Source: Ligilactobacillus faecis (GTDB lineage: Bacteria; Bacillota; Bacilli; Lactobacillales; Lactobacillaceae). Taken from it: a stretch of DNA of 64,000 bases. Below, piece after piece: positions 47,758 to 63,910 of this stretch (positions within the stretch are counted from its first letter, which is position 1; each line of letters starts with the position of its first letter). The position numbers were made by a program, and so were the translations under genes. A model generated the notes under the pieces. The model had not been told where the DNA came from. It did no database searches and worked only from the letters and a program-made list of their open reading frames with translations. The DNA is taken from positions 274,501 to 338,500 of the forward strand of contig NZ_CP123639.1 in NCBI RefSeq assembly GCF_029889745.1, given 5' to 3'.

Positions 47758-47781
47758 TATTTATATTAAGAGGTGTATGAC

Positions 47782-48936
47782 ATGGCATATATTAAAAAAT
47801 ATACAAAAAAAGATGGGTCAAAAGCTTATATGTTTAAAGCATATCTTGGAATTGATCCACTAACAGGAAAAGAGCGTCACACTACTAGACGAGGTTTTAG
47901 AACGATTTCAGAAGCAAAGACAGCTATATCACGCTTAGAATTGGAAGTAAAGGAAGATGGATTACCTACTAGTCAAAGAAAGATAATGACATTTCAAGAA
48001 CTATATGTACTATGGTTTGAGCAATACAAAACAACAATAAAAGAAAGCTCTGCATTCTCTCAGCGATCAAATATTCAACTCCACATTTTACCTAAATTTG
48101 GTAAGCTTAAACTGGACAAGATAAGCACAGCATATTGCCAAAAACAAGTAAATAACTGGTTCAAAACAGTTAAGAACTATCATAACTTAATCGGACTTAC
48201 TAGACGCATATTGAACTATGGGAAAGCTTTAAAACAAATATCAAGTAATCCAATGGATAATGTAATAATTCCAAAACGAAAGGATAAAACTACTAACAAA
48301 ATTAATCCTAATAACTTCTACGATAAACAACAACTGCAAACGTTTATGAAGACATTGGAGGAACATGCTTCTTTTCAAATGTACGTGGTATTCAGGGTTT
48401 TAGCTTTTACAGGAATCAGAAAAGGTGAACTTTCCGCACTTAAATGGTCTGATATTGATTTTAAAACTCATACCTTATCGATCAAAAGAACAGTAGCCTT
48501 TGATCAGAATGGAAAATTGTACTGTCAAACTCCCAAAACTAAAAATAGCAATCGTTTGTTATCTTTAGACAAAGAAACAGTAGAGATATTAAAAAAATGG
48601 CAAAATAAACAACGGAAGGAAATGTTTAAAAAAGGCATTAATATAGACAAGGAAGATAATTTAGTTTTTCATAATAATAATGGTGGCTTCATTCAAAACA
48701 GTATATTTGGTTTTCTGAATCGATTTACGACTAAATATAATTTACCTCCAATAACTCCCCATGGATTTAGACATACACATGCTAGTCTACTTTTTGAATC
48801 TGGTGCAACAGTTAAAGAAGTGCAAGAACGATTAGGACATGAGAATGTTAAAACAACACTTGATGTTTACACGCATGTAACTAAATCAGCACGTGAAAAA
48901 ACTGCCAATAAATTTGCCGAGTATGTTAGTTTTTAA
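47782..48936 (+). CDS. int: Tyrosine integrase
   Basis: 384 residues from MAYIKKYTKKDGSKAYMFKA (ATG 47782 behind AGAGGTG; an upstream GTG is ignored). Arm-binding and core-binding domains come first, then the catalytic set R (FTGIRKGELSALKW), HxxR (HGFRHTHASLL), H (LGHENVKTTL) and Tyr (DVYTHV). It recombines attP with the 41-bp attB beyond rplQ. The stop lies 79 bp from attR. Confidence 0.93.
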   Translation: MAYIKKYTKKDGSKAYMFKAYLGIDPLTGKERHTTRRGFRTISEAKTAISRLELEVKEDGLPTSQRKIMTFQELYVLWFEQYKTTIKESSAFSQRSNIQLHILPKFGKLKLDKISTAYCQKQVNNWFKTVKNYHNLIGLTRRILNYGKALKQISSNPMDNVIIPKRKDKTTNKINPNNFYDKQQLQTFMKTLEEHASFQMYVVFRVLAFTGIRKGELSALKWSDIDFKTHTLSIKRTVAFDQNGKLYCQTPKTKNSNRLLSLDKETVEILKKWQNKQRKEMFKKGINIDKEDNLVFHNNNGGFIQNSIFGFLNRFTTKYNLPPITPHGFRHTHASLLFESGATVKEVQERLGHENVKTTLDVYTHVTKSAREKTANKFAEYVSF

Positions 48937-52013: not shown

Positions 52014-52850
<837 letters not shown>

Positions 52851-52904
52851 AAGCTCTGTGACTTTAGCATAAAAATAGAGCTTTAAGGGCTTGGCCTACC
52901 ATGT

Positions 52905-54257
52905 TTAGTTATGCTCTTTTTTCGAGTCACTCGTTTTCGCTAGATCGATCAACGGATCACTCAAGTATGTGAAATACGGATAAAAGAAAGTCCGCGAATA
53001 CTTCAAGTCATCGATCGTCATTTTATTTTGGATCGCTAGTGCAAGGCGGAGGATCATTTCTGTTAGATCGGAATGCGCACAGATCTGGCCGCCAAGGATC
53101 CGACGATCTTTTTTGTGATAGATGATCCGGAGCTTGATCTCATCTTTTTTCCCAAGCGTAGATAACAAAGTAACTTTTGAACTTTCGACATATTCAGCTT
53201 CAATATTATATAAGTGCGCACTTTTAATAGTGATCCCCGTTGAAAATAGATTGAGATCAAAAATTTTGATCGCACTGATCGTAACTGAACCTGTAGCTGG
53301 GAGTGGTTTTTCTAAAATACTTTGCGCTGCAATGTAGCCACTCCGTAACGCATTTGCAACCGAAAAATCACTTCTTTGGTCTTCAGTCGCACAAGAATAA
53401 AACGTTGCACAATCACCTACAGCATAAACATCTGGATCAGAGGTACGCTGTTGCTTATCAACAAGGTAAGCCCCATTTGTATAGTGATCTAGATGAAAGC
53501 GTCCTAGATCTGTATTAGGAATAAAGCCCGTTGCTAAAACAACGATGTCAGCCCGATAGTACCCTTGCGTCGTCACGACCGCTGTAACTTTTCCGCCACT
53601 TCCTTCAAAACGAGTCACTTCTTCATCCAAATGTAACTCGATCCCATGTTCAGCAAGGTGTTGCTGTGCAATTTCACTAAAGCTCTTATCATAGTGACTA
53701 TTCAAGATCTCCGGTTGGATCTCAAATAAGCGGACATTTTTATTCCGAAGGCTCAAAGCTTCTGCTACTTCGACCCCCAAATATCCCCCACCGATGATCG
53801 CAATATTTTTAACGCTCAAATTATCAAGTTTTTGATTCAAAAAGAGAGCATCATCTAGATCTTTGAGTAGTTGGATCCCTGCCAGCTCGCTATTTTCGAT
53901 CCCTAGTCTTTGCTGGCGTGATCCTGTCGCTAAAACTAACTTATCATATTTGAGTGTGCTTTTTTTATGCAATTGGTCTTTGAGTAAGATCTTTTTTTCT
54001 TTAAAATCGATCCCAATAACTTCTGAACTCTCATAAAAGTGAGCCACATTCTCTTTTATCTCATCAAGATCACTATAAAAAAATTCTTTGTAAGTCCTGA
54101 TCTTATTTCCAAGTAATAACGGTGTGCCTCCACTGATATAACCGACTTGTTTTCTCCGATCGATCAAAGTGATCTCAACATCTTTTTTACTTTGCAGTAG
54201 TTGGCGTGTTGTTGCTAACCCCGCATGATTTGCTCCTATAATAGCCACCTTCATCAT
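52905..54257 (-). CDS. NADH oxidase / CoA-disulfide reductase-like flavoprotein lacking the redox cysteine
   Basis: About 450 residues. FAD motif MKVAIIGANHAGLATTRQLL, NAD motif IAIIGGGYLGVEVAEAL, second FAD motif DPDVYAVGDCATFY, and a Nox-type dimerisation domain. In this family the conserved Cys follows a beta strand as S(C)G near residue 42-45; here the segment is GYISGGTPLLLG, with Gly where Cys is expected. Without it, water-forming peroxidatic chemistry is unlikely; H2O2 formation or another substrate is more plausible. Confidence 0.8.
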   Translation of the reverse strand: MMKVAIIGANHAGLATTRQLLQSKKDVEITLIDRRKQVGYISGGTPLLLGNKIRTYKEFFYSDLDEIKENVAHFYESSEVIGIDFKEKKILLKDQLHKKSTLKYDKLVLATGSRQQRLGIENSELAGIQLLKDLDDALFLNQKLDNLSVKNIAIIGGGYLGVEVAEALSLRNKNVRLFEIQPEILNSHYDKSFSEIAQQHLAEHGIELHLDEEVTRFEGSGGKVTAVVTTQGYYRADIVVLATGFIPNTDLGRFHLDHYTNGAYLVDKQQRTSDPDVYAVGDCATFYSCATEDQRSDFSVANALRSGYIAAQSILEKPLPATGSVTISAIKIFDLNLFSTGITIKSAHLYNIEAEYVESSKVTLLSTLGKKDEIKLRIIYHKKDRRILGGQICAHSDLTEMILRLALAIQNKMTIDDLKYSRTFFYPYFTYLSDPLIDLAKTSDSKKEHN

Positions 54258-54441
54258 TCATTCCCCTTTGATAGCTAATTGTCATAGACGGGAGTGCTTA
54301 CTAGCTCACTAGCTTTAAAAATACTGATCGTCTCAGCGTTCGTTCAAGTCAACCACTATTTTTCCCTCCTGCCAATCTTCTTGCTAGATCTGCTCTTGAT
54401 TTAAGAAAATATATCTTGCACTACTTATTATACATCGACTC

Positions 54442-54470
54442 ACTATAATTATTTACTACATTTACATCAA
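54442..54470 (-). promoter_or_regulatory. Promoter of the Nox-like gene
   Basis: TTGATG (54465-54470), 17 bp, TATAGT (54442-54447), leaving a leader of about 175 nt. The leader holds a possible 7-codon frame (MVDLNER) behind AGGAGG and a small CTGA/TCAG hairpin with T5. Nothing else is seen in 54258-54525. Confidence 0.5.
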
Positions 54471-54525
54471 ATTTTTTTTATATAATAAAAAAGATCAGCT
54501 AGTTCATAATAACTCCCCCTTAAAC

Positions 54526-54557
54526 AAAAAGAGCCGTCCTGCATAGGTACGACTCTA
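54526..54557 (-). terminator. tRNA-Pro terminator
   Basis: AGAGTCGT and ACGGCTCT (one G-U) around an 11-nt loop, followed by T5 on the minus strand, just past the tRNA. Confidence 0.75.
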
Positions 54558-54569
54558 ACTAGTAATTGA

Positions 54570-54643
54570 TCGGGATGGCAGGATTTGAACCTGTGACCCC
54601 CACGTCCCGAACGTGGTGCTCTACCAAACTGAGCTACATCCCG
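54570..54643 (-). tRNA. tRNA-Pro (anticodon CGG)
   Basis: A complete cloverleaf: acceptor CGGGATG/CATCCCG, anticodon arm CCACG-TTCGGGA-CGTGG with anticodon CGG, T-loop TTCAAAT. The CCA end is not encoded. It reads CCG proline codons. Confidence 0.93.
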
Positions 54644-54655
54644 AAAACAATTACT

Positions 54656-54683
54656 ATTATAATACTAGTTTGTTAAATGTAAA
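54656..54683 (-). promoter_or_regulatory. tRNA-Pro promoter
   Basis: TTTACA (54678-54683), 16 bp, TATAAT (54656-54661), 12 nt ahead of the tRNA 5' end. Confidence 0.75.
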
Positions 54684-54779
54684 AGGAAAATCTTATTTTT
54701 CTTAACATTTATCTGTGCAAGGAACGTGCTTTAGTAAATAAAACAGACTATCATAAAAGATGAAAGGAAGGTGGATAAC

Positions 54780-55493
54780 ATGACAAATACTTGGCTTTAT
54801 AAGCAATTATTTACCAATTGGAAGAAATTTGAAGTTATCTATGTCAGCATTTTGATCTTGATCCAACTGGCTGTCTTTTTGGTCGTTCCCGATAGCTTGA
54901 TCGGTATGATCTCAGGTGTCACGGGCACATTATCCCTTGTTTACGGGATGAAAGGGCGCAAGATCGCCTTTATCTTTGGAACGATCCAATGTCTAGCCAT
55001 GACTTACATCGCTTGGATCAGCCACGCCTATGGTTCATTTGCGATGGATATCTTCTATGTCATCTCGCAACCCATCGGCTGGTTCATGTGGGGCCACGAC
55101 CAAGCAACACATCGCTTTTCTTCTGCCAATCGCAAAAAACTCTTTGTTAGTGCCTTTGTCGCTTGGCTCATCGGCTGGTGGATCTTAGCTTTACTACACG
55201 GACAACTGCCGTATTTTGATTCGATCAATTTTGTCGTCAGTTTCATTGCGCAACTGCTCTACATCTTGAAATACCAAGAAAACTGGTCACTTTGGATCGT
55301 GGTCAACATTGCCAATATCCTCTACTGGTCGATCCTAAGCCTTCAAGTCATAACTGGGGCTACTGACATCGGTTCTTTAGGGGCTTACCTCTCCCAAGTT
55401 GCCTTGCAAGCAGCTCTACTCTTCAACTCGATCTATGCAACTAAAGTCTGGGCCAGTGGTGAAGCCGACAATGAGGGTGGAACTAAGTCGTAA
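54780..55493 (+). CDS. pnuC: PnuC-like nicotinamide riboside/mononucleoside transporter
   Basis: 237 residues with about seven membrane helices. The family signatures are present (WLIGWWILALLHGQLPYFDS; SIYATKVWASGE at the end). It imports nicotinamide riboside by facilitated diffusion for NAD synthesis. Start 54780 is taken because AGGAAGGTGG precedes it; GTG 54771 is too close to that site. Confidence 0.85.
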   Translation: MTNTWLYKQLFTNWKKFEVIYVSILILIQLAVFLVVPDSLIGMISGVTGTLSLVYGMKGRKIAFIFGTIQCLAMTYIAWISHAYGSFAMDIFYVISQPIGWFMWGHDQATHRFSSANRKKLFVSAFVAWLIGWWILALLHGQLPYFDSINFVVSFIAQLLYILKYQENWSLWIVVNIANILYWSILSLQVITGATDIGSLGAYLSQVALQAALLFNSIYATKVWASGEADNEGGTKS

Positions 55494-55590
55494 ATTATAT
55501 AAATAAATCAATATTTACTCTTTAATACTCACTCTAAGTAAGTTAATATAGATGGTGCTTACTAAAAATAAGAAATAATGGTAACTAACT

Positions 55591-55971
55591 ATGGAATTCA
55601 AAGATGCACCTACACCTTGAATTCTCTCAGCGTGGTCGATCTATGACTTAGGAGCTTTTGGACAAACCTTAATGCTGGGAGCTGCTGCTCGAAAAATCGA
55701 TTCAATACCAGCGTGGAAGAGCGTCAAGTATCCAAGTGTCGTTAAAAATATCATGCAGATCCCAGATGATAAACAACTCATAATGGGGATCGCACTAGGT
55801 TATCGCAACCAAGCAACAAAGATCAACGTTTTTTATACTGAGCGCAGTGAAGTTGATAAGTTTTTAAGTTATCCAAATACTGTTCGCCCCAATCGCATAA
55901 TGCTACTACGATCGAAACTATACTATTCCCCAATTCAGTCAACGAATACTCTGTTTTACGCATTTGAGTAA
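55591..55971 (+). pseudogene. Nitroreductase remnant (C-terminal fragment)
   Basis: The frame from 55621 reads SAWSIYDLGAFGQTLMLGAA, IDSIPAWKSVKYPSVVKNI and IMGIALGYRNQATKINVF, the C-terminal FMN-binding half of NfsA/NfsB-like nitroreductases. The N-terminal half is missing. An ATG at 55591 in the same frame meets a stop nine codons later. The normal end after YPNT is lost as well. Confidence 0.75.
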
Positions 55972-56058
55972 TAAGCCGATCACCAATCTTAGCATACAAA
56001 TAAAGTCACGAAAATAGATCAAACTTGACGCAATAAATTTTTCTGACACCACTTTACC

Positions 56059-57342
56059 TCATCCTTCAGCACACATTTCCTGTTTACGCTTATTTAAAAC
56101 TGGTAGTACCACAAAGGCTGTAAATTCTCCATTTACGGCTTTAAAATCATAATACCCGTTATATTTAGCAACTCTTCTTTTGATACTCCTCAGCCCAATT
56201 CCTTGGCGCCCATATCTTTTAGATGATCCAACCCTAAGTTTATTATGATTTTGCTGGCGTATTCCCGAGTAAGGATTTTTCACTTTAAATATAAGTTTAC
56301 CTTCCTTAAATGCCAACATAATTTTTATAGACTTCTCACTTGGTGTGGCCTCAATTGCGTTATCCAATATATTTCCTAAAATTGCGCAGATATCTATCTC
56401 CTGTTTGCTAAGATCCAAATCCCTGGGAACTTGCAACTTTAATTTATAATCTATATTTTTTAATGTCATTACTTTTATCTTCTGACTTATAATTGCATCT
56501 AAAGCTAAAATTCCTGTATGTTTATTCTTGAGTACAGTACTTTTAGAAATATCAGCTACCAACTCTTGAATTTTTCTATGATCTTTTCGTTCTGCATAAT
56601 ATGCAATACTTGCTAAAATATTTTTCAAATCATGTCTCAACGTTCTGATCTCTTCTTCTTGTTGCAAAAAATCTCTAAAAAACTCTAACTGCAACTTTTC
56701 AAGTTGCAACATTTGTACTTGATAATTTTTGGCTGTTAAATAGTTGTATAGATATAAAATAGAAACATTGAACCACAACAACAATAAACAAATAACTAGC
56801 AATATTCCACTGTTATGGATCAAATTCAACACTAAAAAAATTGACGACAATATTGGTGCTTGCATTAAAAGCAAATATTCCTTGATCGAAACATCTACTT
56901 TATTTTCAAATTTAAAATTTCTCAGGCATTGAATCAGCATAATAAAAAAAATAAGAATAATTGCATACATTCCCAAGAAAAACAAACTAGCATTTCCACT
57001 TACTACCATGTAAAGTGCCTGCCCAATATTTTCTTGGATCAATAGGAATGAACTTAAAAAACTATAGTGAAATATTTTTTTATAGACTGATCCTCGTAGG
57101 CACCACCACATTATTAAAAATAATATTGTAAACGCGATCCCTCTGCCACCATATATTTTTGTTCCTATATTCAACGAAACTTTACTTATAAGTATTGCTC
57201 CAAACAATATACTGCCTAGTTTTACACTTGTTATTTTGAATTTAAAGAAGTAACCTAAATAAATATAAACCGTAAGTGCTTGAATAATGATCACTACTGT
57301 CGACAAAACCATATTAATGCTATTACTCATATCCCGGTACAC
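56059..57342 (-). CDS. AgrC-type sensor histidine kinase
   Basis: 427 residues: about six to seven N-terminal membrane helices, then a cytoplasmic kinase with the H box TLRHDLKNILASIAYYA and the N box LGNILDNAIEA, and GIGLRSIKRRVAKYNG. These are HPK10 features, kinases that sense peptide pheromones. It overlaps the response regulator gene by 16 bp. The ligand may be the mature product of this locus, because no AgrB or AgrD is present in the window. Confidence 0.85.
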   Translation of the reverse strand: MYRDMSNSINMVLSTVVIIIQALTVYIYLGYFFKFKITSVKLGSILFGAILISKVSLNIGTKIYGGRGIAFTILFLIMWWCLRGSVYKKIFHYSFLSSFLLIQENIGQALYMVVSGNASLFFLGMYAIILIFFIMLIQCLRNFKFENKVDVSIKEYLLLMQAPILSSIFLVLNLIHNSGILLVICLLLLWFNVSILYLYNYLTAKNYQVQMLQLEKLQLEFFRDFLQQEEEIRTLRHDLKNILASIAYYAERKDHRKIQELVADISKSTVLKNKHTGILALDAIISQKIKVMTLKNIDYKLKLQVPRDLDLSKQEIDICAILGNILDNAIEATPSEKSIKIMLAFKEGKLIFKVKNPYSGIRQQNHNKLRVGSSKRYGRQGIGLRSIKRRVAKYNGYYDFKAVNGEFTAFVVLPVLNKRKQEMCAEG

Positions 57343-58055
57343 CTTTCAATAAATTTGGTATACGCTTTCTTAAAATCTTGTCTATTTCGGCGGCTAATAT
57401 ACACGACCTTCTCATTTATTAATGTTATTTGATCACCAATTATCCCTGTTATATAATTCAGATTGATTATCACACCACGATTGACTTGAAAAAAATAACT
57501 GCTTGGTAAAATTTTCAGTAGTTCTTTTAACTTGAAATAAAATTCAATTTCAGACTCATCCACTGATCCAATTTTTACTTTTCGCCCTAATTCTGATGAA
57601 ATCACAACAATATCTCTAATTCTCAACTGATAATGTCGCTTACCAATTTTATAAAAAAGGTATTGATTATGGTGATCCAATTCAAATACAAGTTGTTGTA
57701 AAATTGGCTCCATTTTCTCACTGTCGATCGGTTTTAGCACATATCTAAACGGTAAAACCTCAAAGCTTTCCAACATATAATTATCATATCCAGTTATAAA
57801 AACGAGCAAAAATTCTTTCTCCAACGCTCGTAATCTTTTTGCTACTTCGATCCCATTTATCCCTTGCATTTCTATATCCAAAAAAATGAGTTGATAATTA
57901 TTTTTTGGTTCACTCATAACATTTAACAATGTTTCTGGTTTAAAAAAAACATCTATCTCTATCTTTCTATCTATAGTCGCAAAAAAGTCTAAGATTATTT
58001 TTTCTGTAATCCCCGTTTGCTCAACATTATCATCACAAATAGCTATTTTATACAT
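57327..58055 (-). CDS. AgrA/PlnC-type LytTR response regulator
   Basis: 242 residues. Receiver domain with phospho-acceptor in LIFLDIEMQGINGIEVAKRL and a C-terminal LytTR DNA-binding domain (YFFQVNRGVIINLNYI). Pairs with the downstream AgrC-like kinase and probably activates the RiPP promoter. Confidence 0.88.
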   Translation of the reverse strand: MYKIAICDDNVEQTGITEKIILDFFATIDRKIEIDVFFKPETLLNVMSEPKNNYQLIFLDIEMQGINGIEVAKRLRALEKEFLLVFITGYDNYMLESFEVLPFRYVLKPIDSEKMEPILQQLVFELDHHNQYLFYKIGKRHYQLRIRDIVVISSELGRKVKIGSVDESEIEFYFKLKELLKILPSSYFFQVNRGVIINLNYITGIIGDQITLINEKVVYISRRNRQDFKKAYTKFIERCTGI

Positions 58056-58097
58056 TGAATCACCTCTAATCTTAATTTAATTATAACATTTCACACT

Positions 58098-58862
58098 CTA
58101 GTATTCCTTTTTCTCAAATTGCTTAACTGTTAAAAATATAAGGCCACTGCACAAAAGACCCAATTCAACATACTGAAAGATCACTCTTGATGATGTAAAT
58201 TTATAATTAGCTACAACTGTAAAATATCCTGGAATAAACTCACTTACACCAGGGATATATGCCAATAGCATACACAATAAATAGACTCCCATTCCTGAAA
58301 GAGTTGCGACAATTACACCTGAATTAATTGAAAGATAAAACGTTGTCATTAGCAAAAAAAATATAAATAATAAGCTTGCAATTGATACCAAAATTGATTC
58401 TAAATTATAATTGTGGGTTACAAAAATAGAGCTGTAGCCTTTATTTGTTCTAGAAAGAAAAACTATATACGTACAAATTGAACAAATAATATTGGTTATA
58501 TAGAATAGCATACACATAAGCAAAATTGCTAAAGCTTTCCCTACTATTAAGGTCTTCTTATGCTTTATTCTTGTTACTTCTAACAACATTTGCCCTTCAT
58601 TTATTTCGCCTCCTAAAGTTGTAGCAGCTATAAATAATAATAGAATCAATGGTATTGTTAACATAACAGTAAAGCTCCACATACTTGTGGCAAATGTTAT
58701 CAGATCTAGCTTAGCTCCTATTAAAACTATTTTCCATTTAAAATATGCTCCCATCCCATATAACAAAGGTAAAAGATTTAAGCATAGTAAAGAAACTAAA
58801 TATTTTTTCTTGTAAAACTTATAAAATTCAACTTTTATAATTTCTTTTAGCAACTTCCTCAC
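58098..58862 (-). CDS. ABC-2 type permease, likely immunity transporter subunit
   Basis: 254 residues with six membrane helices (LVSLLCLNLLPLLYGMGAYF; IPLILLLFIAATTLGGEINE). Gene order and a 4-bp overlap with the ATPase gene show a two-part ABC transporter, like immunity pairs in RiPP and lantibiotic loci (SkfEF, EpeAB, LanFE). Confidence 0.75.
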   Translation of the reverse strand: MRKLLKEIIKVEFYKFYKKKYLVSLLCLNLLPLLYGMGAYFKWKIVLIGAKLDLITFATSMWSFTVMLTIPLILLLFIAATTLGGEINEGQMLLEVTRIKHKKTLIVGKALAILLMCMLFYITNIICSICTYIVFLSRTNKGYSSIFVTHNYNLESILVSIASLLFIFFLLMTTFYLSINSGVIVATLSGMGVYLLCMLLAYIPGVSEFIPGYFTVVANYKFTSSRVIFQYVELGLLCSGLIFLTVKQFEKKEY

Positions 58863-59683
58863 CTCACAAAAACATTCTCTAAATTTTTTTCAACAGTAAC
58901 TTTCAAAATTGTTAATCTTGCTTTGGAAATTATTCTAAATAATTCAGATAACATCCTATCATCATTAGCAATCAAAACTACATTTTTTTCTACTATTGCA
59001 AAATTTGATAAAACCGTTCTTACTTTATCCGGGATATATGATAGCCAAATACACAGTTTGCTCTGACTTATCTCTAAGTAACGCCGTAACTTCCTATCTT
59101 TGATAACAAGAAAATAATCACAGATCCCTTCTATTTCACTAAGTTGGTGCGATGATATCAAAACGGTTACCCCTAACTGACTTCGGATCTTCTGAATATA
59201 TTCAATAAACGATTGAACACCCACTGGATCTAGTCCAACAAATGGTTCATCTAAAATTAAAAAATCAGGCTCCTCAAGCATTGCCAAGGCTAAACTTAAT
59301 CTCTGTTTCATCCCAAAAGAATAATCTTTTACCTTCCTTTTATCATTAGGTAAGCCGACAAATTCTAGTAATTTCTCAACACGTGTTACCGAAGGCCTGT
59401 TAGAACCATAACTGCCTATCAATTTTAAATTCTCTGCACCTGATAAAAATTCAAACACTTTACAATCCAGTAAAAATCCAAACTTCACTCCTTCTTTCTT
59501 CTCGATGTTGCCACGTGTTGGCGATGCTAAGCCTAAAATCAATTTCATTAAGGTAGTTTTCCCACAACCATTTCGTCCTACTAGCCCAACAATCTCCCCA
59601 CTTCTAATTTCAAAATTTACATCCTCTATAACAACCTGAGATCCATACTGCTTAAAGAGCTTCTCCACTTTTAGAAGAGTCAT
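58859..59683 (-). CDS. ABC transporter ATPase, likely immunity subunit
   Basis: 274 residues. Walker A LVGRNGCGKTTLMK, signature YSFGMKQRLSLALAML, Walker B FLILDEPFVGLDP, and SSHQLSEIE. The 32-bp overlap with the exporter gene shows co-transcription. It probably expels or keeps out the mature peptide. Confidence 0.85.
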   Translation of the reverse strand: MTLLKVEKLFKQYGSQVVIEDVNFEIRSGEIVGLVGRNGCGKTTLMKLILGLASPTRGNIEKKEGVKFGFLLDCKVFEFLSGAENLKLIGSYGSNRPSVTRVEKLLEFVGLPNDKRKVKDYSFGMKQRLSLALAMLEEPDFLILDEPFVGLDPVGVQSFIEYIQKIRSQLGVTVLISSHQLSEIEGICDYFLVIKDRKLRRYLEISQSKLCIWLSYIPDKVRTVLSNFAIVEKNVVLIANDDRMLSELFRIISKARLTILKVTVEKNLENVFVR

Positions 59684-61316
59684 TATTTTTCACCCCCACA
59701 GACATTCTAGTTTCATATTCATTCTTGCTTACAACTTTCCCATCTTTTAAGTAAATTATTTCATCCATTTTATTTAAAAATTCTTCATCTGAATTATGTG
59801 TTATACAAATAATTAATTTACCTTGCTCTAATATATAATCTTGAATCATTATTTTTGTTTCGTTATCAAGAGTATTTTCAAACTCATCCATCAATACAAG
59901 TGAACTATTACTAATAAGTGTCCTAGCTATATTTATTTTCCTCTTCTCACCACCTGACATACTCCCACATGCTATCTCAGACATCCCTTTATTGTTAAAA
60001 AAATATTCAGATATATTAACTCTTCTCAATATCTCATCCAGTTTTTCACGTAAATTTTCCCTACCTAAAAGAATATTTTCTGATAAATTTTTTCCAAAAA
60101 TTACTGACTCTTGTGGTAAAAAAGATATATCAGTTATTATCCTCTCCTTTAGACATTCCCCATTCACAAATATATTTCCTGAATAATTTTTCCTTATTCC
60201 TAAAATAACTTGAAATAAAGTACTCTTTCCACTACCATTCTCACCTATGATTGCGTATTTTTTTCTATCATTGAATTCCAGAGTAACATTATCCAATATC
60301 TTGCGCCCATCATCACCATTTAAAGATACGTTCTTTAACTCTAAAGTTTCTATTTTTTTATTATAATTTTCTAAATGCTTAAACTTCCTTCCATATTCCA
60401 ACAAATTATCCAATTTTTCTCTTATACTTTTACTTCCTTTAATCTCTAAAACTGCTATTCCAATCTGTTGCATGGGTATGATCAACATATTTGAAACCTG
60501 TGTTACAGCAACTAACTGTCCCAAATTTACTTTACCAACTATAACTCCAGCCCCGGCTATAATTAAGCATAAAATTATGATTGTATATTGAAATAGTGCA
60601 CTAAGCTGATTTAGTTTTCCATTTGTTATACCTAATGCCTGTGTATGCTCTTCTAAAGTTACTAGTTTTTGGGTAAATTCATCAGAAAATTTCTTTTCTA
60701 GCCTATATCCTCTAATTACCTCCATACCCGTCAATATCTCTTTTATTTTTGATAAAAATTCAGAATTTAGTTTAGAATTTTTATCAACCATATCATTGAC
60801 GATTTTTCCTAAAATTATCGGTAATATTAGAGAAAGCATTCCTAATCCAAGGACCAGAATTGTTATGAGTGTACTAACACTCAATAAATAACCCATTCCA
60901 ATTATCAAAATAAATATATTAGCAATAAATTCCCATACATTGTTTAAATAATATTGTTCATAGACATCCATATAATATTCAAAATAATTTATCTTTTCAC
61001 CTATAGATACTTTTTGAATATTCTCAAAATCAGTATATAAACAAAAATCCATCAACCGTCTTTTCATCTCTATATGGATTTTCTTTTGAATTATCGATTG
61101 TATCTTAATCAACCAGTAAGTCATAAAATAGTTAGACAGTATAAAAAATACAAATAATACTACTGACAACTGAAAAATAAAAAAATCATTATTTTCTATA
61201 GAGCTAATAAACAATTGGATGATCAACGCGAAAGAAATATCTATTACCCCTACAATTAAAGAGAGCAGTACAAACAAAATGATTTTATATTTTTGTTTTA
61301 GAAGTATTTTTCTCAT
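59652..61316 (-). CDS. Peptide ABC exporter (membrane and ATPase domains, no C39 protease)
   Basis: 554 residues. Six membrane helices in the first 300 residues, then an ATPase domain: Walker A IIGENGSGKSTLFQ, CGSMSGGEKRKINIARTL, Walker B LVLMDEFENTLD, and CITHNSDE. LanT-type exporters often start with a C39 leader peptidase; this one starts directly with membrane spans, so cleavage is left to the CPBP protein. Confidence 0.85.
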   Translation of the reverse strand: MRKILLKQKYKIILFVLLSLIVGVIDISFALIIQLFISSIENNDFFIFQLSVVLFVFFILSNYFMTYWLIKIQSIIQKKIHIEMKRRLMDFCLYTDFENIQKVSIGEKINYFEYYMDVYEQYYLNNVWEFIANIFILIIGMGYLLSVSTLITILVLGLGMLSLILPIILGKIVNDMVDKNSKLNSEFLSKIKEILTGMEVIRGYRLEKKFSDEFTQKLVTLEEHTQALGITNGKLNQLSALFQYTIIILCLIIAGAGVIVGKVNLGQLVAVTQVSNMLIIPMQQIGIAVLEIKGSKSIREKLDNLLEYGRKFKHLENYNKKIETLELKNVSLNGDDGRKILDNVTLEFNDRKKYAIIGENGSGKSTLFQVILGIRKNYSGNIFVNGECLKERIITDISFLPQESVIFGKNLSENILLGRENLREKLDEILRRVNISEYFFNNKGMSEIACGSMSGGEKRKINIARTLISNSSLVLMDEFENTLDNETKIMIQDYILEQGKLIICITHNSDEEFLNKMDEIIYLKDGKVVSKNEYETRMSVGVKNNDSSKSGEAL

Positions 61317-61325
61317 ATACGTTAC

Positions 61326-62555
61326 CTACTGCTCAAAGATTTCCTTAGTTGTATCACTATAATAATCCCTAAATAATTCACAATACGGATCCTGAGCAAT
61401 AACGTTACCATACTTCATGTATGATCTTGCTCTACATCCTCCACCGCAAAAATATCTAAATTGACATTCTGTACAATTTCCACTTAATTTATCAACACTT
61501 AAGTTTCTAAATGTTTTTAATTTATGCGAATGTTCTAGAATATACTTTAAGGAATTCTTTTTAACATTTCCTAAACAAAACTCTTCATACATCAGCATAT
61601 GACATGGATAAACATTGCCATCGGTCCCTACTGAAATCATTGTTTTACCTGCCCCACAATAATTCTCTGCATGAAATTTTTCAAAAATATTGCTATCTTC
61701 AATAGCCATATCAGTATTTTTCATAAATTGACTAATTGTTCGCAAATCTTTATTATTTGGCAAATAATTAAGCAATTCACCTTCAAAACATGCTGATAAT
61801 ATACTAAAGCTAATTGTTACACCTAACTTATCAGCTAACTTGACATATTCTTCTAAATATTTTGAGTTTAAATGATGTATGGTTGGTAAAATATTCACAT
61901 TGTTTCCAGTTTCTTTTAGCCATCCAATAGATCTCATTATCTTATCAAAAATATTGGAATCTCTTAAAAAAGGTTTTCCATCTGAACAATAAGTATCCAA
62001 AGAAACTGAAACAGTATCTATATACTTTGACAACTCAGATAAAATCTTCTTGTTAAATATTGTTCCATTTGTAATAAGGATAAGATTAGGGAATTTACAA
62101 TCTATTTTTGCATACCTTACTATCTCAATGATATTCCTAGTAAGTAATGGTTCACCGCCCGAGAACACCAAATTCTCTACTCCTACATCCCTAAGTTGAA
62201 AGATTGCCTGTTTTATTTCTTCTGTGGTCATATCTTTATACTTATTTCTTTTTTCGTCTAACGAGTAACATCCAACACAATGTAAATTACATTTGTTAGT
62301 TAAATGAATATAAGCTGATATTGGAGTATTCCTAACCACAAACTGCTTTTCAGAAATAAACTCGTTATCTTTTAAAAACTCAAAAAACTCTTTTTCTTCA
62401 CCATTTAACTCATCTTTAGAGATATTCCCTTTCTTTAAATTATCTAATAATTCTACAGCTTCTCTAGTGACACCAGCTACCACTCCATTATCGAAATTAA
62501 ATAATAATTCTGTATTTTTTGAATGTAAGACTGCAATATTATCATTTATAAACAC
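61326..62555 (-). CDS. Radical SAM enzyme with SPASM domain (RiPP maturase)
   Basis: 409 residues. The first ~85 resemble a PqqD-like precursor-binding (RRE) fold (NFDNGVVAGVTREAVELLDN). The radical SAM motif CNLHCVGC (CxxxCxxC) binds the [4Fe-4S] cluster. The C-terminal SPASM cysteines appear as CGAGKTMISVGTDGNVYPC and CTECQFRYFCGGGC, then PYC. Sactisynthase-like enzymes form Cys-to-alpha-carbon thioethers; the two precursor cysteines fit, but other cross-links are possible. Confidence 0.88.
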   Translation of the reverse strand: MFINDNIAVLHSKNTELLFNFDNGVVAGVTREAVELLDNLKKGNISKDELNGEEKEFFEFLKDNEFISEKQFVVRNTPISAYIHLTNKCNLHCVGCYSLDEKRNKYKDMTTEEIKQAIFQLRDVGVENLVFSGGEPLLTRNIIEIVRYAKIDCKFPNLILITNGTIFNKKILSELSKYIDTVSVSLDTYCSDGKPFLRDSNIFDKIMRSIGWLKETGNNVNILPTIHHLNSKYLEEYVKLADKLGVTISFSILSACFEGELLNYLPNNKDLRTISQFMKNTDMAIEDSNIFEKFHAENYCGAGKTMISVGTDGNVYPCHMLMYEEFCLGNVKKNSLKYILEHSHKLKTFRNLSVDKLSGNCTECQFRYFCGGGCRARSYMKYGNVIAQDPYCELFRDYYSDTTKEIFEQ

Positions 62556-62961
62556 TATTTCCGCCCACCTTACTAAATAATTTTATCAACACAAATTCTA
62601 GTAAAAACAACATAATAAACGAAGATATACCAAAATCTAAACTAATATTTGTTACCACAAGTCCATCAATATTTTGAGTCAACATTGCTGTATTTTTTTC
62701 TATAGAGGCTAATGTGCTATTATCAACTCTAAAATAGCTAAACAGTAAAATAATAATTACAAAAGTAACTGCAGCTATAAACGCAGACATACTTTCTCCA
62801 ATAGGCCTAATTATGCATACAGAAAAAACTGCGAATAAAATTGCAGGAAAAATAACAACAAACAGAAAGAAAGTCAATAAATTCAGTTTATCTACCAGTA
62901 AAAAGACTATAATCATATTCAACATAAATAATGCGCTTGATATTTTCTTTACCATCCTCAT
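62542..62961 (-). CDS. Small membrane protein of the RiPP locus, 139 aa
   Basis: Four hydrophobic helices (LFMLNMIIVFLLVDKL; FFLFVVIFPAILFAVFSVCI). It overlaps the radical SAM gene by 14 bp. By analogy to AlbB-type small membrane proteins it could be accessory immunity; unrecognised. Confidence 0.6.
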   Translation of the reverse strand: MRMVKKISSALFMLNMIIVFLLVDKLNLLTFFLFVVIFPAILFAVFSVCIIRPIGESMSAFIAAVTFVIIILLFSYFRVDNSTLASIEKNTAMLTQNIDGLVVTNISLDFGISSFIMLFLLEFVLIKLFSKVGGNSVYK

Positions 62962-62973
62962 CCCCCATATACT

Positions 62974-63540
62974 TTACATAATTGAAATACAGATATTATA
63001 CATAGCATGAATTATTGTTGGATATATTAATTTTTTAAATTTTATCTTTATACAACAAAACACTACTCCTAATGGAAATCTATACAATAAGTTATTTATT
63101 ATTTCCTCCCCCATATGACCAATAATGGCAAATAAAAAGCTACTAATTATCAGAGCAACAATAATACTATAATTTTCCCTTATATCATCAAATATTATTT
63201 TTCTGTACAAATATTCTTCTGAAAATGCTGCTACTAAAAAATGAATTGACATAAAAAATAACGTTTGAGTTTTCATAGTAAAATACATAATAGCTATAAA
63301 GGAAGCTACTATAATTAAATCAACTTTATTTGGAGTTTCGTATACAAATTTACTTTTTCGATATTGTTCAATTAAATATGGAAATACTGTTAATGCTAAC
63401 AACACAGGGAGAGTTAATCTCACTAGTATATTTTCAAAGGGAAATATACTTACGACTAACATGATGAGCACTAATATACTTCCCGATAAGACTGATAGCA
63501 TAACAGGATAGAAAAGTTTATCACTGTGTCTTCTTATCAC
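62974..63540 (-). CDS. CPBP-family intramembrane protease, likely leader peptidase
   Basis: 188 residues, GTG start at 63540 behind AGGAG. Polytopic with the CPBP/Abi motifs: AFSEEYLYRK (EExxxR), FLFAIIGHMGE (FxxxH) and HAMYN. Similar proteases occur in Skf and epipeptide loci. It probably trims the modified precursor. Confidence 0.85.
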   Translation of the reverse strand: MIRRHSDKLFYPVMLSVLSGSILVLIMLVVSIFPFENILVRLTLPVLLALTVFPYLIEQYRKSKFVYETPNKVDLIIVASFIAIMYFTMKTQTLFFMSIHFLVAAFSEEYLYRKIIFDDIRENYSIIVALIISSFLFAIIGHMGEEIINNLLYRFPLGVVFCCIKIKFKKLIYPTIIHAMYNICISIM

Positions 63541-63554
63541 TTCTCAGCTCCTAC

Positions 63555-63594
63555 TAATTAACACCAAGCAAACAATTTTACTTGGTGTTAATTA
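63555..63594 (-). other. 14-bp perfect hairpin between precursor and processing genes
   Basis: TAATTAACACCAAG and CTTGGTGTTAATTA pair perfectly around a 12-nt loop, 8 bp past the precursor stop and just ahead of the protease ribosome site. No T tract follows on the minus strand, so it is a partial terminator or an mRNA-stabilising element rather than a full stop. Confidence 0.75.
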
Positions 63595-63601
63595 CAATCT
63601 C

Positions 63602-63715
63602 TTATACATCACTCTTAACTTCTTTGATATAATGGCCAACGGATCCACAAACGATATAACCAACAGAGATACATCCAGTTTTTTTCACTTTCTTCTTAGT
63701 AAAAAATTTAATCAT
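63602..63715 (-). CDS. 37-aa RiPP precursor peptide
   Basis: Starts MIKFFTKKKVKKTG and continues CISVGYIVCGSVGHYI before a hydrophilic end KEVKSDV. A basic leader-like N terminus (six Lys within residues 3-12) is followed by a glycine-rich hydrophobic core with two Cys eight residues apart. GGAGGTG lies 6 nt upstream. It is first in the operon, as usual for precursors of radical SAM RiPPs. I know no named family with this pattern. Confidence 0.78.
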   Translation of the reverse strand: MIKFFTKKKVKKTGCISVGYIVCGSVGHYIKEVKSDV

Positions 63716-63789: not shown

Positions 63790-63910
63790 ATTTCTATATT
63801 GCTGTATTTTGTACCTCATTATGTAGTAAGCGGTTAAATTTACTGAATTAAACAATTTTAACAAATTATTTATTCCATAAGTTCTTGTATAAAACTCCTG
63901 AATTGTCAAA

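What the first reader, a model, noticed from the sequence alone, without database searches (positions are those of the whole stretch)
56059..63715. Quorum-type radical-SAM RiPP locus, possibly undescribed class
Seen: nine tightly packed or overlapping minus-strand genes from a 37-aa two-Cys peptide to an AgrC-like kinase, with radical SAM/SPASM, CPBP protease, exporter lacking C39, and an ABC immunity-like pair. Known: Skf, subtilosin (alb) and epipeptide loci combine the same functions. Inference: a sactipeptide- or ranthipeptide-like antimicrobial or signal, whose core peptide matches none of those precursors that I know.
Basis: partly seen in the sequence, partly recalled or inferred. Interest (0 to 1): 0.88.

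Follow-up and report, generated by a model that had tools for sequence, protein, structure and literature searches.

The report
Undescribed radical-SAM peptide operon family
A mobile nine-gene operon found in several lactic-acid-type bacteria very probably makes, exports, senses and resists a small modified peptide of a kind that the databases searched here do not name, so its chemistry and its use as antibiotic or signal can now be tested.

Summary
In detail: nine co-directional genes (56059-63715, minus strand) encode a 37-aa peptide, a CPBP protease, an orphan membrane protein, a radical-SAM/SPASM enzyme, an ABC exporter without C39, an ABC pair and an AgrA/AgrC-type pair. It is not a one-off. 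All nine parts recur in seven further loci (one on a Streptococcus salivarius plasmid, its maturase gene split by an insertion); an eighth is split over contigs; looser relatives lie further off in the phylum. The precursors define a family: short basic leader, conserved first Cys, and two C-x-[ST]-[VI]-G units eight residues apart. The second Cys is Ser or Gln in three of the eight loci, so 'two-Cys' is not the rule. Eight precursors tested match no NCBIfam model; the maturase is far under the cut-offs of the 25 best NCBIfam families shown. A TTACTACA box precedes the precursor genes. Two decayed loci without a maturase have exactly one unit deleted; one keeps the ABC pair intact, which supports immunity. 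Most likely: an auto-induced antimicrobial RiPP with one small modification per unit. Thioether rings (streptosactin-like, unnested) are my first choice, valine-centred chemistry the main rival. Neither chemistry nor activity is shown.

The parts
63822..63829 (-). TTACTACA box, candidate site of the LytTR regulator
   Evidence: Exact in 7 of 8 loci, 7 of 8 bases in the eighth, 90-138 nt before the precursor ATG. Binding not tested.
63602..63715 (-). Precursor peptide, 37 aa: MIKFFTKKKVKKTGCISVGYIVCGSVGHYIKEVKSDV
   Evidence: relatives
63659..63673 (-). Codons of unit 1, C-I-S-V-G (residues 15-19)
63635..63649 (-). Codons of unit 2, C-G-S-V-G (residues 23-27)
   Evidence: exactly this 8-codon step is missing in two decayed loci
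63555..63594 (-). Perfect 14-bp inverted repeat between precursor and CPBP genes; candidate transcript attenuator or processing hairpin
   Evidence: 0 of 300 shuffles reach it; sequence-different long stems at the same place in 6 of 7 other loci
62974..63540 (-). CPBP (Rce1-like) intramembrane protease; candidate leader peptidase
   Evidence: counterparts in all 12 loci scanned
62542..62961 (-). 139-aa membrane protein without family; role unknown
61326..62555 (-). Radical SAM/SPASM maturase with predicted N-terminal RRE-like domain
59652..61316 (-). ABC exporter, fused membrane and ATPase domains, no C39
58859..59683 (-). ABC ATPase, lantibiotic-protection type; candidate immunity
   Evidence: best NCBIfam TIGR03740, 165.4 bits, cut-off 309.75; retained in the decayed locus of G455
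58098..58862 (-). ABC permease partner; candidate immunity
   Evidence: No family; conserved partner; retained in G455
57327..58055 (-). LytTR response regulator
56059..57342 (-). GHKL (AgrC-type) sensor kinase; an ATG start some 12 nt further in is also possible

Best explanation
It is the complete operon of an auto-induced, probably antimicrobial RiPP. The precursor is a basic leader of about 13 residues, a core with two C-x-[ST]-[VI]-G units, and a conserved tail HYIKEIKSxV. The radical SAM/SPASM enzyme grips the precursor through its N-terminal domain and makes one small modification per unit; my first choice is a thioether from the unit's Cys to the residue three or four places on, giving small unnested rings as in streptosactin. 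The CPBP protease trims it, the ABC exporter lets it out, and the ATPase/permease pair protects the producer. The kinase senses the exported peptide, and the LytTR regulator then acts at the TTACTACA box before the precursor gene. Shown by sequence: gene set, synteny, precursor family, units, box, hairpin. Inferred: chemistry, order of events, activity, ligand of the kinase.
For: Seven further loci hold all nine parts and an eighth is split over contigs. In the three-to-eight-genus spread of these loci the precursor keeps M, F, K, K, C, S, V, G, S, G (10 rows). Second [ST][VIFY]G unit in 15 of 17 precursors against a mean of 1.3 and a maximum of 5 in 2000 shuffles. All three radical-SAM Cys and seven Cys in the canonical SPASM spacing are invariant in 13 enzymes (spacing recalled). 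Nearest solved structures by sequence and by fold are CteB, PqqE, SuiB, SkfB and TigE besides sulfatase maturases; the model starts with three strands and two helices. Box exact in 7 of 8. No other peptide gene or AgrB-sized gene in the window's operon or in 4 of the 7 others whose gene lists I read. Two independent single-unit precursors lie in loci without maturase; one keeps ATPase and permease open at 290 and 250 aa.
Against: The second unit has no Cys in 3 of 8 loci, so a thioether in every unit is impossible there. L028a and L067 peptides lack the unit pattern. The kinase/regulator pair is absent from the four looser relatives examined, so it is not part of the core. The second half of a LytTR direct repeat was not established, and 11 of 18 exact TTACTACA sites lie elsewhere. 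The model's SPASM part is poor (pLDDT under 50 in places, TM about 0.57). An Rgg gene lies near the G637 locus, so another quorum input is possible there. No activity data exist.
Confidence: 0.5

Rival explanations
1. Same operon logic, but the enzyme modifies the Val/Ile of each [ST]-[VI]-G unit (for example cyclopropylglycine, as TvgB does in TVGG repeats, or epimerisation as in epipeptides); the Cys serves otherwise.
For: The second unit keeps [ST]-[VI]-G where its Cys is lost (3 of 8 loci). TvgA carries repeated TVGG whose Val becomes cyclopropylglycine (PMC9062424: abstract, passages and section 4 seen). TigE (whose chemistry I only recall) and EpeE are among the fold matches, at ranks 7 and 50.
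Against: The first Cys is kept in all 17 precursors (partly by selection, see full report). Unit 2 has Tyr or Phe in the two L055 precursors, which cannot give cyclopropylglycine. TvgB is from Halomonas; no sequence comparison with it was made.
Confidence: 0.27
2. A classical nested-hairpin sactipeptide of the thuricin CD or subtilosin type.
For: Cys in the first half of the core; sactisynthase-type enzyme; the two Cys lie 8 apart, as Cys5 and Cys13 of thuricin CD do (positions from PMC8172795 passages).
Against: The L055 precursors have only 7 residues after the second Cys, too few for nested partners; three loci have one Cys only.
Confidence: 0.1
3. The peptide is purely a signal, not an antimicrobial; the ABC pair imports or clears it.
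For: Own kinase and regulator in 8 of 8 loci of the close clade; ranthipeptides are reported to take part in quorum sensing in clostridia (cited in PMC8326336, passage seen).
Against: Looser relatives keep precursor, maturase, CPBP and exporter but have no such pair; a decayed locus keeps the ABC pair although its kinase is frameshifted, which fits resistance better than signalling.
Confidence: 0.13

Closest known systems
Streptosactin (GGG RaS-RiPP) and StsB-family maturases
   Same: Radical SAM/SPASM enzyme; best sactipeptide models by score (StsB 123.4 bits for the window, 128.2 for L025; exporter GggC 141.2); small Cys-based units that could form unnested rings (Cys25-Ser28, Cys31-Gly34 in streptosactin, PMC8172795 section 10)
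   Different: All far under cut-off (625, 750); different precursor; CPBP, 139-aa protein and ABC pair; LytTR/GHKL pair instead of Rgg/SHP; acceptor spacing would be +3 or +4 in C-x-S-V-G
TVG peptides (TvgA/TvgB, poly-cyclopropylglycine)
   Same: Repeated [ST]-V-G units in the precursor and one radical SAM enzyme
   Different: No Cys motif is described for TvgA in what I read; dioxygenase TvgC; Halomonas
Subtilosin (alb), SKF and epipeptide (Yyd/Epe) loci
   Same: Maturase + membrane protease + exporter/immunity ABC genes (gene functions recalled)
   Different: AlbA 70.9 bits against 850; no match of precursors; none is known to me to carry an AgrC-type kinase
Agr-linked radical SAM cluster on a Paraclostridium sordellii plasmid (L073)
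   Same: LytTR + kinase genes next to radical SAM genes
   Different: Has AgrB and a cyclic lactone peptide, S8 peptidase and three radical SAM genes; maturase identity 27%

Membership tests
Radical-SAM RiPP (general) | Maturase and short precursor co-conserved in one operon | tested here: met
Radical-SAM RiPP (general) | Radical SAM CxxxCxxC and full SPASM Cys set | tested here: met
   C89, C93, C96 and C300, C318, C361, C364, C370, C374, C392 invariant in 13 enzymes
Radical-SAM RiPP (general) | RRE-type peptide-binding domain | tested here: inconclusive
   Three strands and two helices before residue 64 in the model; no RRE profile was run and the fold match was to whole chains
Sactipeptide | S to C-alpha thioether | not testable with these tools
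   Needs MS/MS and NMR
Sactipeptide | Cys donor for every modified unit | tested here: not met
   Second unit lacks Cys in 3 of 8 loci, unless that unit is unmodified there
Streptosactin/GGG | Exporter and maturase over curated cut-offs | tested here: not met
   GggC 141.2 of 750; StsB 123.4 of 625
Streptococcal RaS-RiPP, 16 subfamilies | Rgg/SHP control and a named precursor motif | tested here: inconclusive
   No Rgg in the window's operon, but one near the G637 locus; I saw only the 16 subfamily names, not all their precursors
Agr quorum sensing | AgrB and AgrD with AgrC/AgrA over cut-off | tested here: not met
   AgrC 20.8 of 500, AgrA 41.2 of 400; best AgrB match in the genome 19 bits, cut-off 23 (none of its 14 control genomes exceeded the cut-off, so sensitivity is unproven)
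TVG cyclopropylglycine peptides | Maturase homologous to TvgB | not tested
   No TvgB sequence was compared

The most novel reading that the evidence does not exclude
The radical-SAM product is itself the ligand of the AgrC-type kinase: an agr-like circuit in which the thiolactone made by AgrB from AgrD is replaced by a ring (or other change) made by a radical SAM enzyme, so that one modular two-unit peptide is both antibiotic and pheromone, spreads between families on mobile elements, and leaves behind resistant non-producers that keep only the ABC pair.
Probability: 0.33. Interest if true: 0.78.

Novelty: new variant of a known kind. Interest (0 to 1): 0.6.

Why it matters
It names a testable RiPP family with a modular core, natural variants that lose one Cys or one whole unit, and an attached sensor. 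Those variants can separate Cys-based from valine-based chemistry in one experiment, and the kinase offers a ready reporter for the mature product. If the peptide is the kinase's ligand, radical-SAM chemistry would supply autoinducers to agr-type sensors without AgrB. It also shows how such a locus moves: a plasmid, integrase-bearing elements, and an IS-flanked island within a ribosomal-protein gene cluster.

Tried and rejected
Rejected or set aside: (1) Loci L029-L035 (maturase 26-29% identical; G329, G085, G184, G325, G130, G277, G010): no shared precursor at E up to 1; with wider queries L029 gave only chance hits (E 0.29 and 0.55) and L030, L031, L034 none; L032, L033 and L035 were not run with the wider queries. 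Treated as other families. (2) Five weaker genomes (E 1e-57 to 1e-61): two loci read (L069, L070), no precursor found; three (L060-L062) not examined. (3) C. difficile, P. sordellii and A. prevotii plasmid loci: different gene sets. (4) Viral contigs: no relative; one search gave 4 contigs with a 34% match over residues 83-177 only, not followed. (5) Precursor searches in plasmids gave only S. salivarius plus one chance match (E 3); phages gave 4 chance matches (E 1 to 10). (6) A LytTR direct repeat: the scripted scan found a 22-nt repeat only in L053 and A/T-rich ones in L024 and L028; not claimed. (7) The 139-aa protein: no family in 11 members beyond scattered single weak hits; no structure made. 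(8) G204 and G410 precursor hits (E 0.007) not followed. (9) The de novo promoter test is only just significant (51 of 54 against a null maximum of 50, 0 of 100 shuffles), its best word was ACTACATAA, and shared ancestry is not removed.

Papers: PMC13361665 abstract and sections 12, 13; PMC8172795 passages and section 10; PMC9062424 abstract, passages and section 4; PMC8326336 and PMC10885120 passages; PMC8188230 abstract and outline; all others listings only. Literature searches; the library holds open-licence papers only, no figures, and supplements were not read, so absence from print is not shown.
Full report
Observation. The exporter matches ABC_membrane and ABC_tran and no C39 domain. 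The kinase and regulator have AgrC/AgrA architecture but score far under the curated cut-offs for those proteins. The 139-aa protein and the permease match no Pfam or NCBIfam family.

Not a one-off. The maturase was sought in 60 relatives (13 with some match at E 0.001, none close but the window's own), in 395 genomes of the order (13 at 1e-20, of which seven, the window's own included, are strong, E 1.5e-82 or better), in the 105 genomes of the family of G101 (12 at 1e-30, five of them at 1e-182 or better), in 247 genomes of the genus of G086 (2 at 1e-40), in 398 of the class (3 at 1e-55) and 398 of the phylum (8 at 1e-55, of which the window's own, G1176 and G1314 are clearly stronger than the other five). 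The sets overlap. In the window's own genus 1 of 26 genomes has it, the window's own. In named collections it was found in an uncultured Bacilli contig (80% identity) and in the plasmid of Streptococcus salivarius ICDC2.

Synteny. Seven further loci hold all nine parts: L010, L023, L054, L024, L025, L053, L027. L010 is the S. salivarius plasmid, where the maturase gene is interrupted by an ISSag10-type transposase and a predicted lnu(C) gene; I describe this only. The G348 locus is split over two contigs, with precursor halves on each and kinase and regulator on the second. In window, L010, L023, L054 and L027 the kinase/regulator genes follow the operon; in L024, L025 and L053 they precede it. 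L009 is a 3.2-kb fragment with CPBP end, 139-aa protein, maturase and exporter start.

Looser relatives. G406 (L028), G758 (L055), G1314 (L068) and G1176 (L067) carry a maturase 33-36% identical, with CPBP and exporter-type genes and one to three candidate precursors, but no kinase/regulator pair of this type. L028 and L055 also have the ATPase/permease pair. Proteins of about 145 aa stand where the 139-aa protein would be expected in L028 and L055; they are only 15-17% identical and were placed by position.

Precursor family. Ten precursors were found by similarity in the window and eight other loci; in L068 two of three gave weak similarity (E 0.024, 0.004) and one was picked by eye, as were those of L028 and L067. 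The lists used showed only ORFs with Cys, so 'first Cys in 17 of 17' is partly by selection; among the ten found by similarity it is 10 of 10. C-x-x-[VI]-G at the first Cys: 13 of 17. A second [ST][VIFY]G unit: 15 of 17, against a mean of 1.3 and a maximum of 5 in 2000 shuffles of the tails. Step from first Cys to second unit: 8 residues in the ten found by similarity and in L028b, 9 to 11 in the other four. Second Cys in 5 of the 8 close-clade loci; Ser in L010 and L023, Gln in L054. Eight of the precursors matched no NCBIfam model at E up to 10.

A natural experiment. A profile of ten precursors searched in 103 genomes of the family of G101 hit 7 genomes at E 0.01. G451, whose precursor is known, is not among them, so it was either not drawn or missed. 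Two hits, G455 and G070, have a single unit joined straight to the tail, a loss of exactly eight codons. Neither locus has a maturase (tblastn at 0.01). G455 keeps the regulator, a kinase in two overlapping frames, a scrap of CPBP, and open ATPase and permease genes (53-54% identical to L025). G070 keeps a 33-residue CPBP scrap; an ABC gene 6 kb away is only 34-37% identical and may be unrelated. I infer that two units are needed in working loci and that the ABC pair gives immunity worth keeping without production.

Maturase. Ten Cys are invariant in 13 enzymes: CxxxCxxC, and seven in the spacing I recall for SPASM domains with two auxiliary clusters. NCBIfam: 89 families match at 0.1; all 25 shown are far under cut-off (AhbD 138.8 of 500, WgkB 133.5 of 650, StsB 123.4 of 625). 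Nearest solved sequence is CteB (E 1.4e-28), then sulfatase maturases, viperin and SkfB. The AlphaFold model is middling (pLDDT 73.4, pTM 0.75, SPASM part poor); fold matches are CteB, PqqE, SuiB, TigE, sulfatase maturase, SkfB, with TM about 0.5-0.6. This places it among peptide maturases but does not choose the chemistry.

Regulation. TTACTACA stands 90-138 nt before the precursor ATG, exact in 7 of 8 loci and with one mismatch in L024. Three of the eight upstream regions are near-identical, so this is five exact of six independent ones. Eleven further exact copies lie elsewhere in the same 8 sequences, which include the 64-kb window. Between precursor and CPBP a long perfect stem occurs in 7 of 8 loci (10 or fewer of 300 shuffles reach it); L010 does not exceed chance (226 of 300), though its short stem is followed by T's. 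This fits attenuation, giving more precursor than enzyme; inferred.

Mobility and setting. The locus has 29.5% G+C against 39.1% in the rest of the window, and no other stretch of its length (500-nt steps) falls under 36.0%. It lies between secY and adk, with infA, rpsM, rpsK and rpoA beyond (most names from recalled sequence, rpoA by Pfam). Three transposase genes or pairs lie between it and secY (ISL3 by Pfam, the others named from recall). Integrase and replication-protein genes lie near the G348 and G406 loci.

Mechanism and rank of explanations. The most likely reading is an auto-induced antimicrobial RiPP with immunity; steps shown and inferred are separated in the Best explanation section. 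For the chemistry, small unnested thioether rings resemble streptosactin (PMC8172795 section 10), while the loss of the second Cys with retention of [ST]-[VI]-G speaks for valine-centred chemistry such as TvgB's (PMC9062424). I put the thioether reading ahead because the first Cys is so well kept and unit 2 can hold Tyr or Phe.

Novelty. The kind (radical-SAM RiPP with exporter, protease, immunity and sensor) is known; this precursor family, its two-unit core and its pairing with an AgrC-type kinase were not found under any name in NCBIfam or in the searched papers. The review of 16 streptococcal subfamilies (PMC13361665, section 12) lists names that do not fit the motif, but I did not see the precursors of the uncharacterised ones.

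Noticed in passing
window 52014-63715 and L036 2407-7959: The island sits between secY and adk, inside the ribosomal-protein gene cluster, beside IS30/ISL3/IS3-type transposase genes, a PnuC-like gene and a NADH-oxidase-like gene.
   Followed up: partly
window 5620-28857 and 47773-48936: Phage genes (terminase, Mu F-like, gp58-like, tyrosine integrase) suggest a prophage next to the rplQ/rpoA end of the same gene cluster.
   Followed up: partly
window 55672-55999: HxlR regulator remnant (Pfam) and a nitroreductase-like fragment (named from recall) on the downstream edge of the operon.
   Followed up: no
L010 8683-11644: In the S. salivarius plasmid the maturase gene is interrupted by an ISSag10-type element with predicted lnu(C), while the other genes look whole.
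   Followed up: partly
L073: Paraclostridium sordellii plasmid: agrB, cyclic lactone peptide gene and LytTR/kinase genes beside three radical SAM genes and an S8 peptidase.
   Followed up: no
L072: C. difficile plasmid p_TW11 with two adjacent radical SAM genes, an S8 peptidase and an ABC exporter; resembles the L073 set.
   Followed up: no
L068 7173-7721: Three different candidate precursors in a row before one maturase gene, each with C-I-x-I-G and a second C-x-[ST]-[VI]-G.
   Followed up: partly
L029-L033: A second maturase family (26-29% identical) in genus g50 of the same family, with no precursor of the present type found.
   Followed up: no
L063-L066: Four viral contigs encode a radical SAM core 34% identical over about 95 residues.
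   Followed up: no
L054 13269-14144: An Rgg-type regulator gene lies about 1 kb beyond the kinase gene, after one other gene.
   Followed up: no
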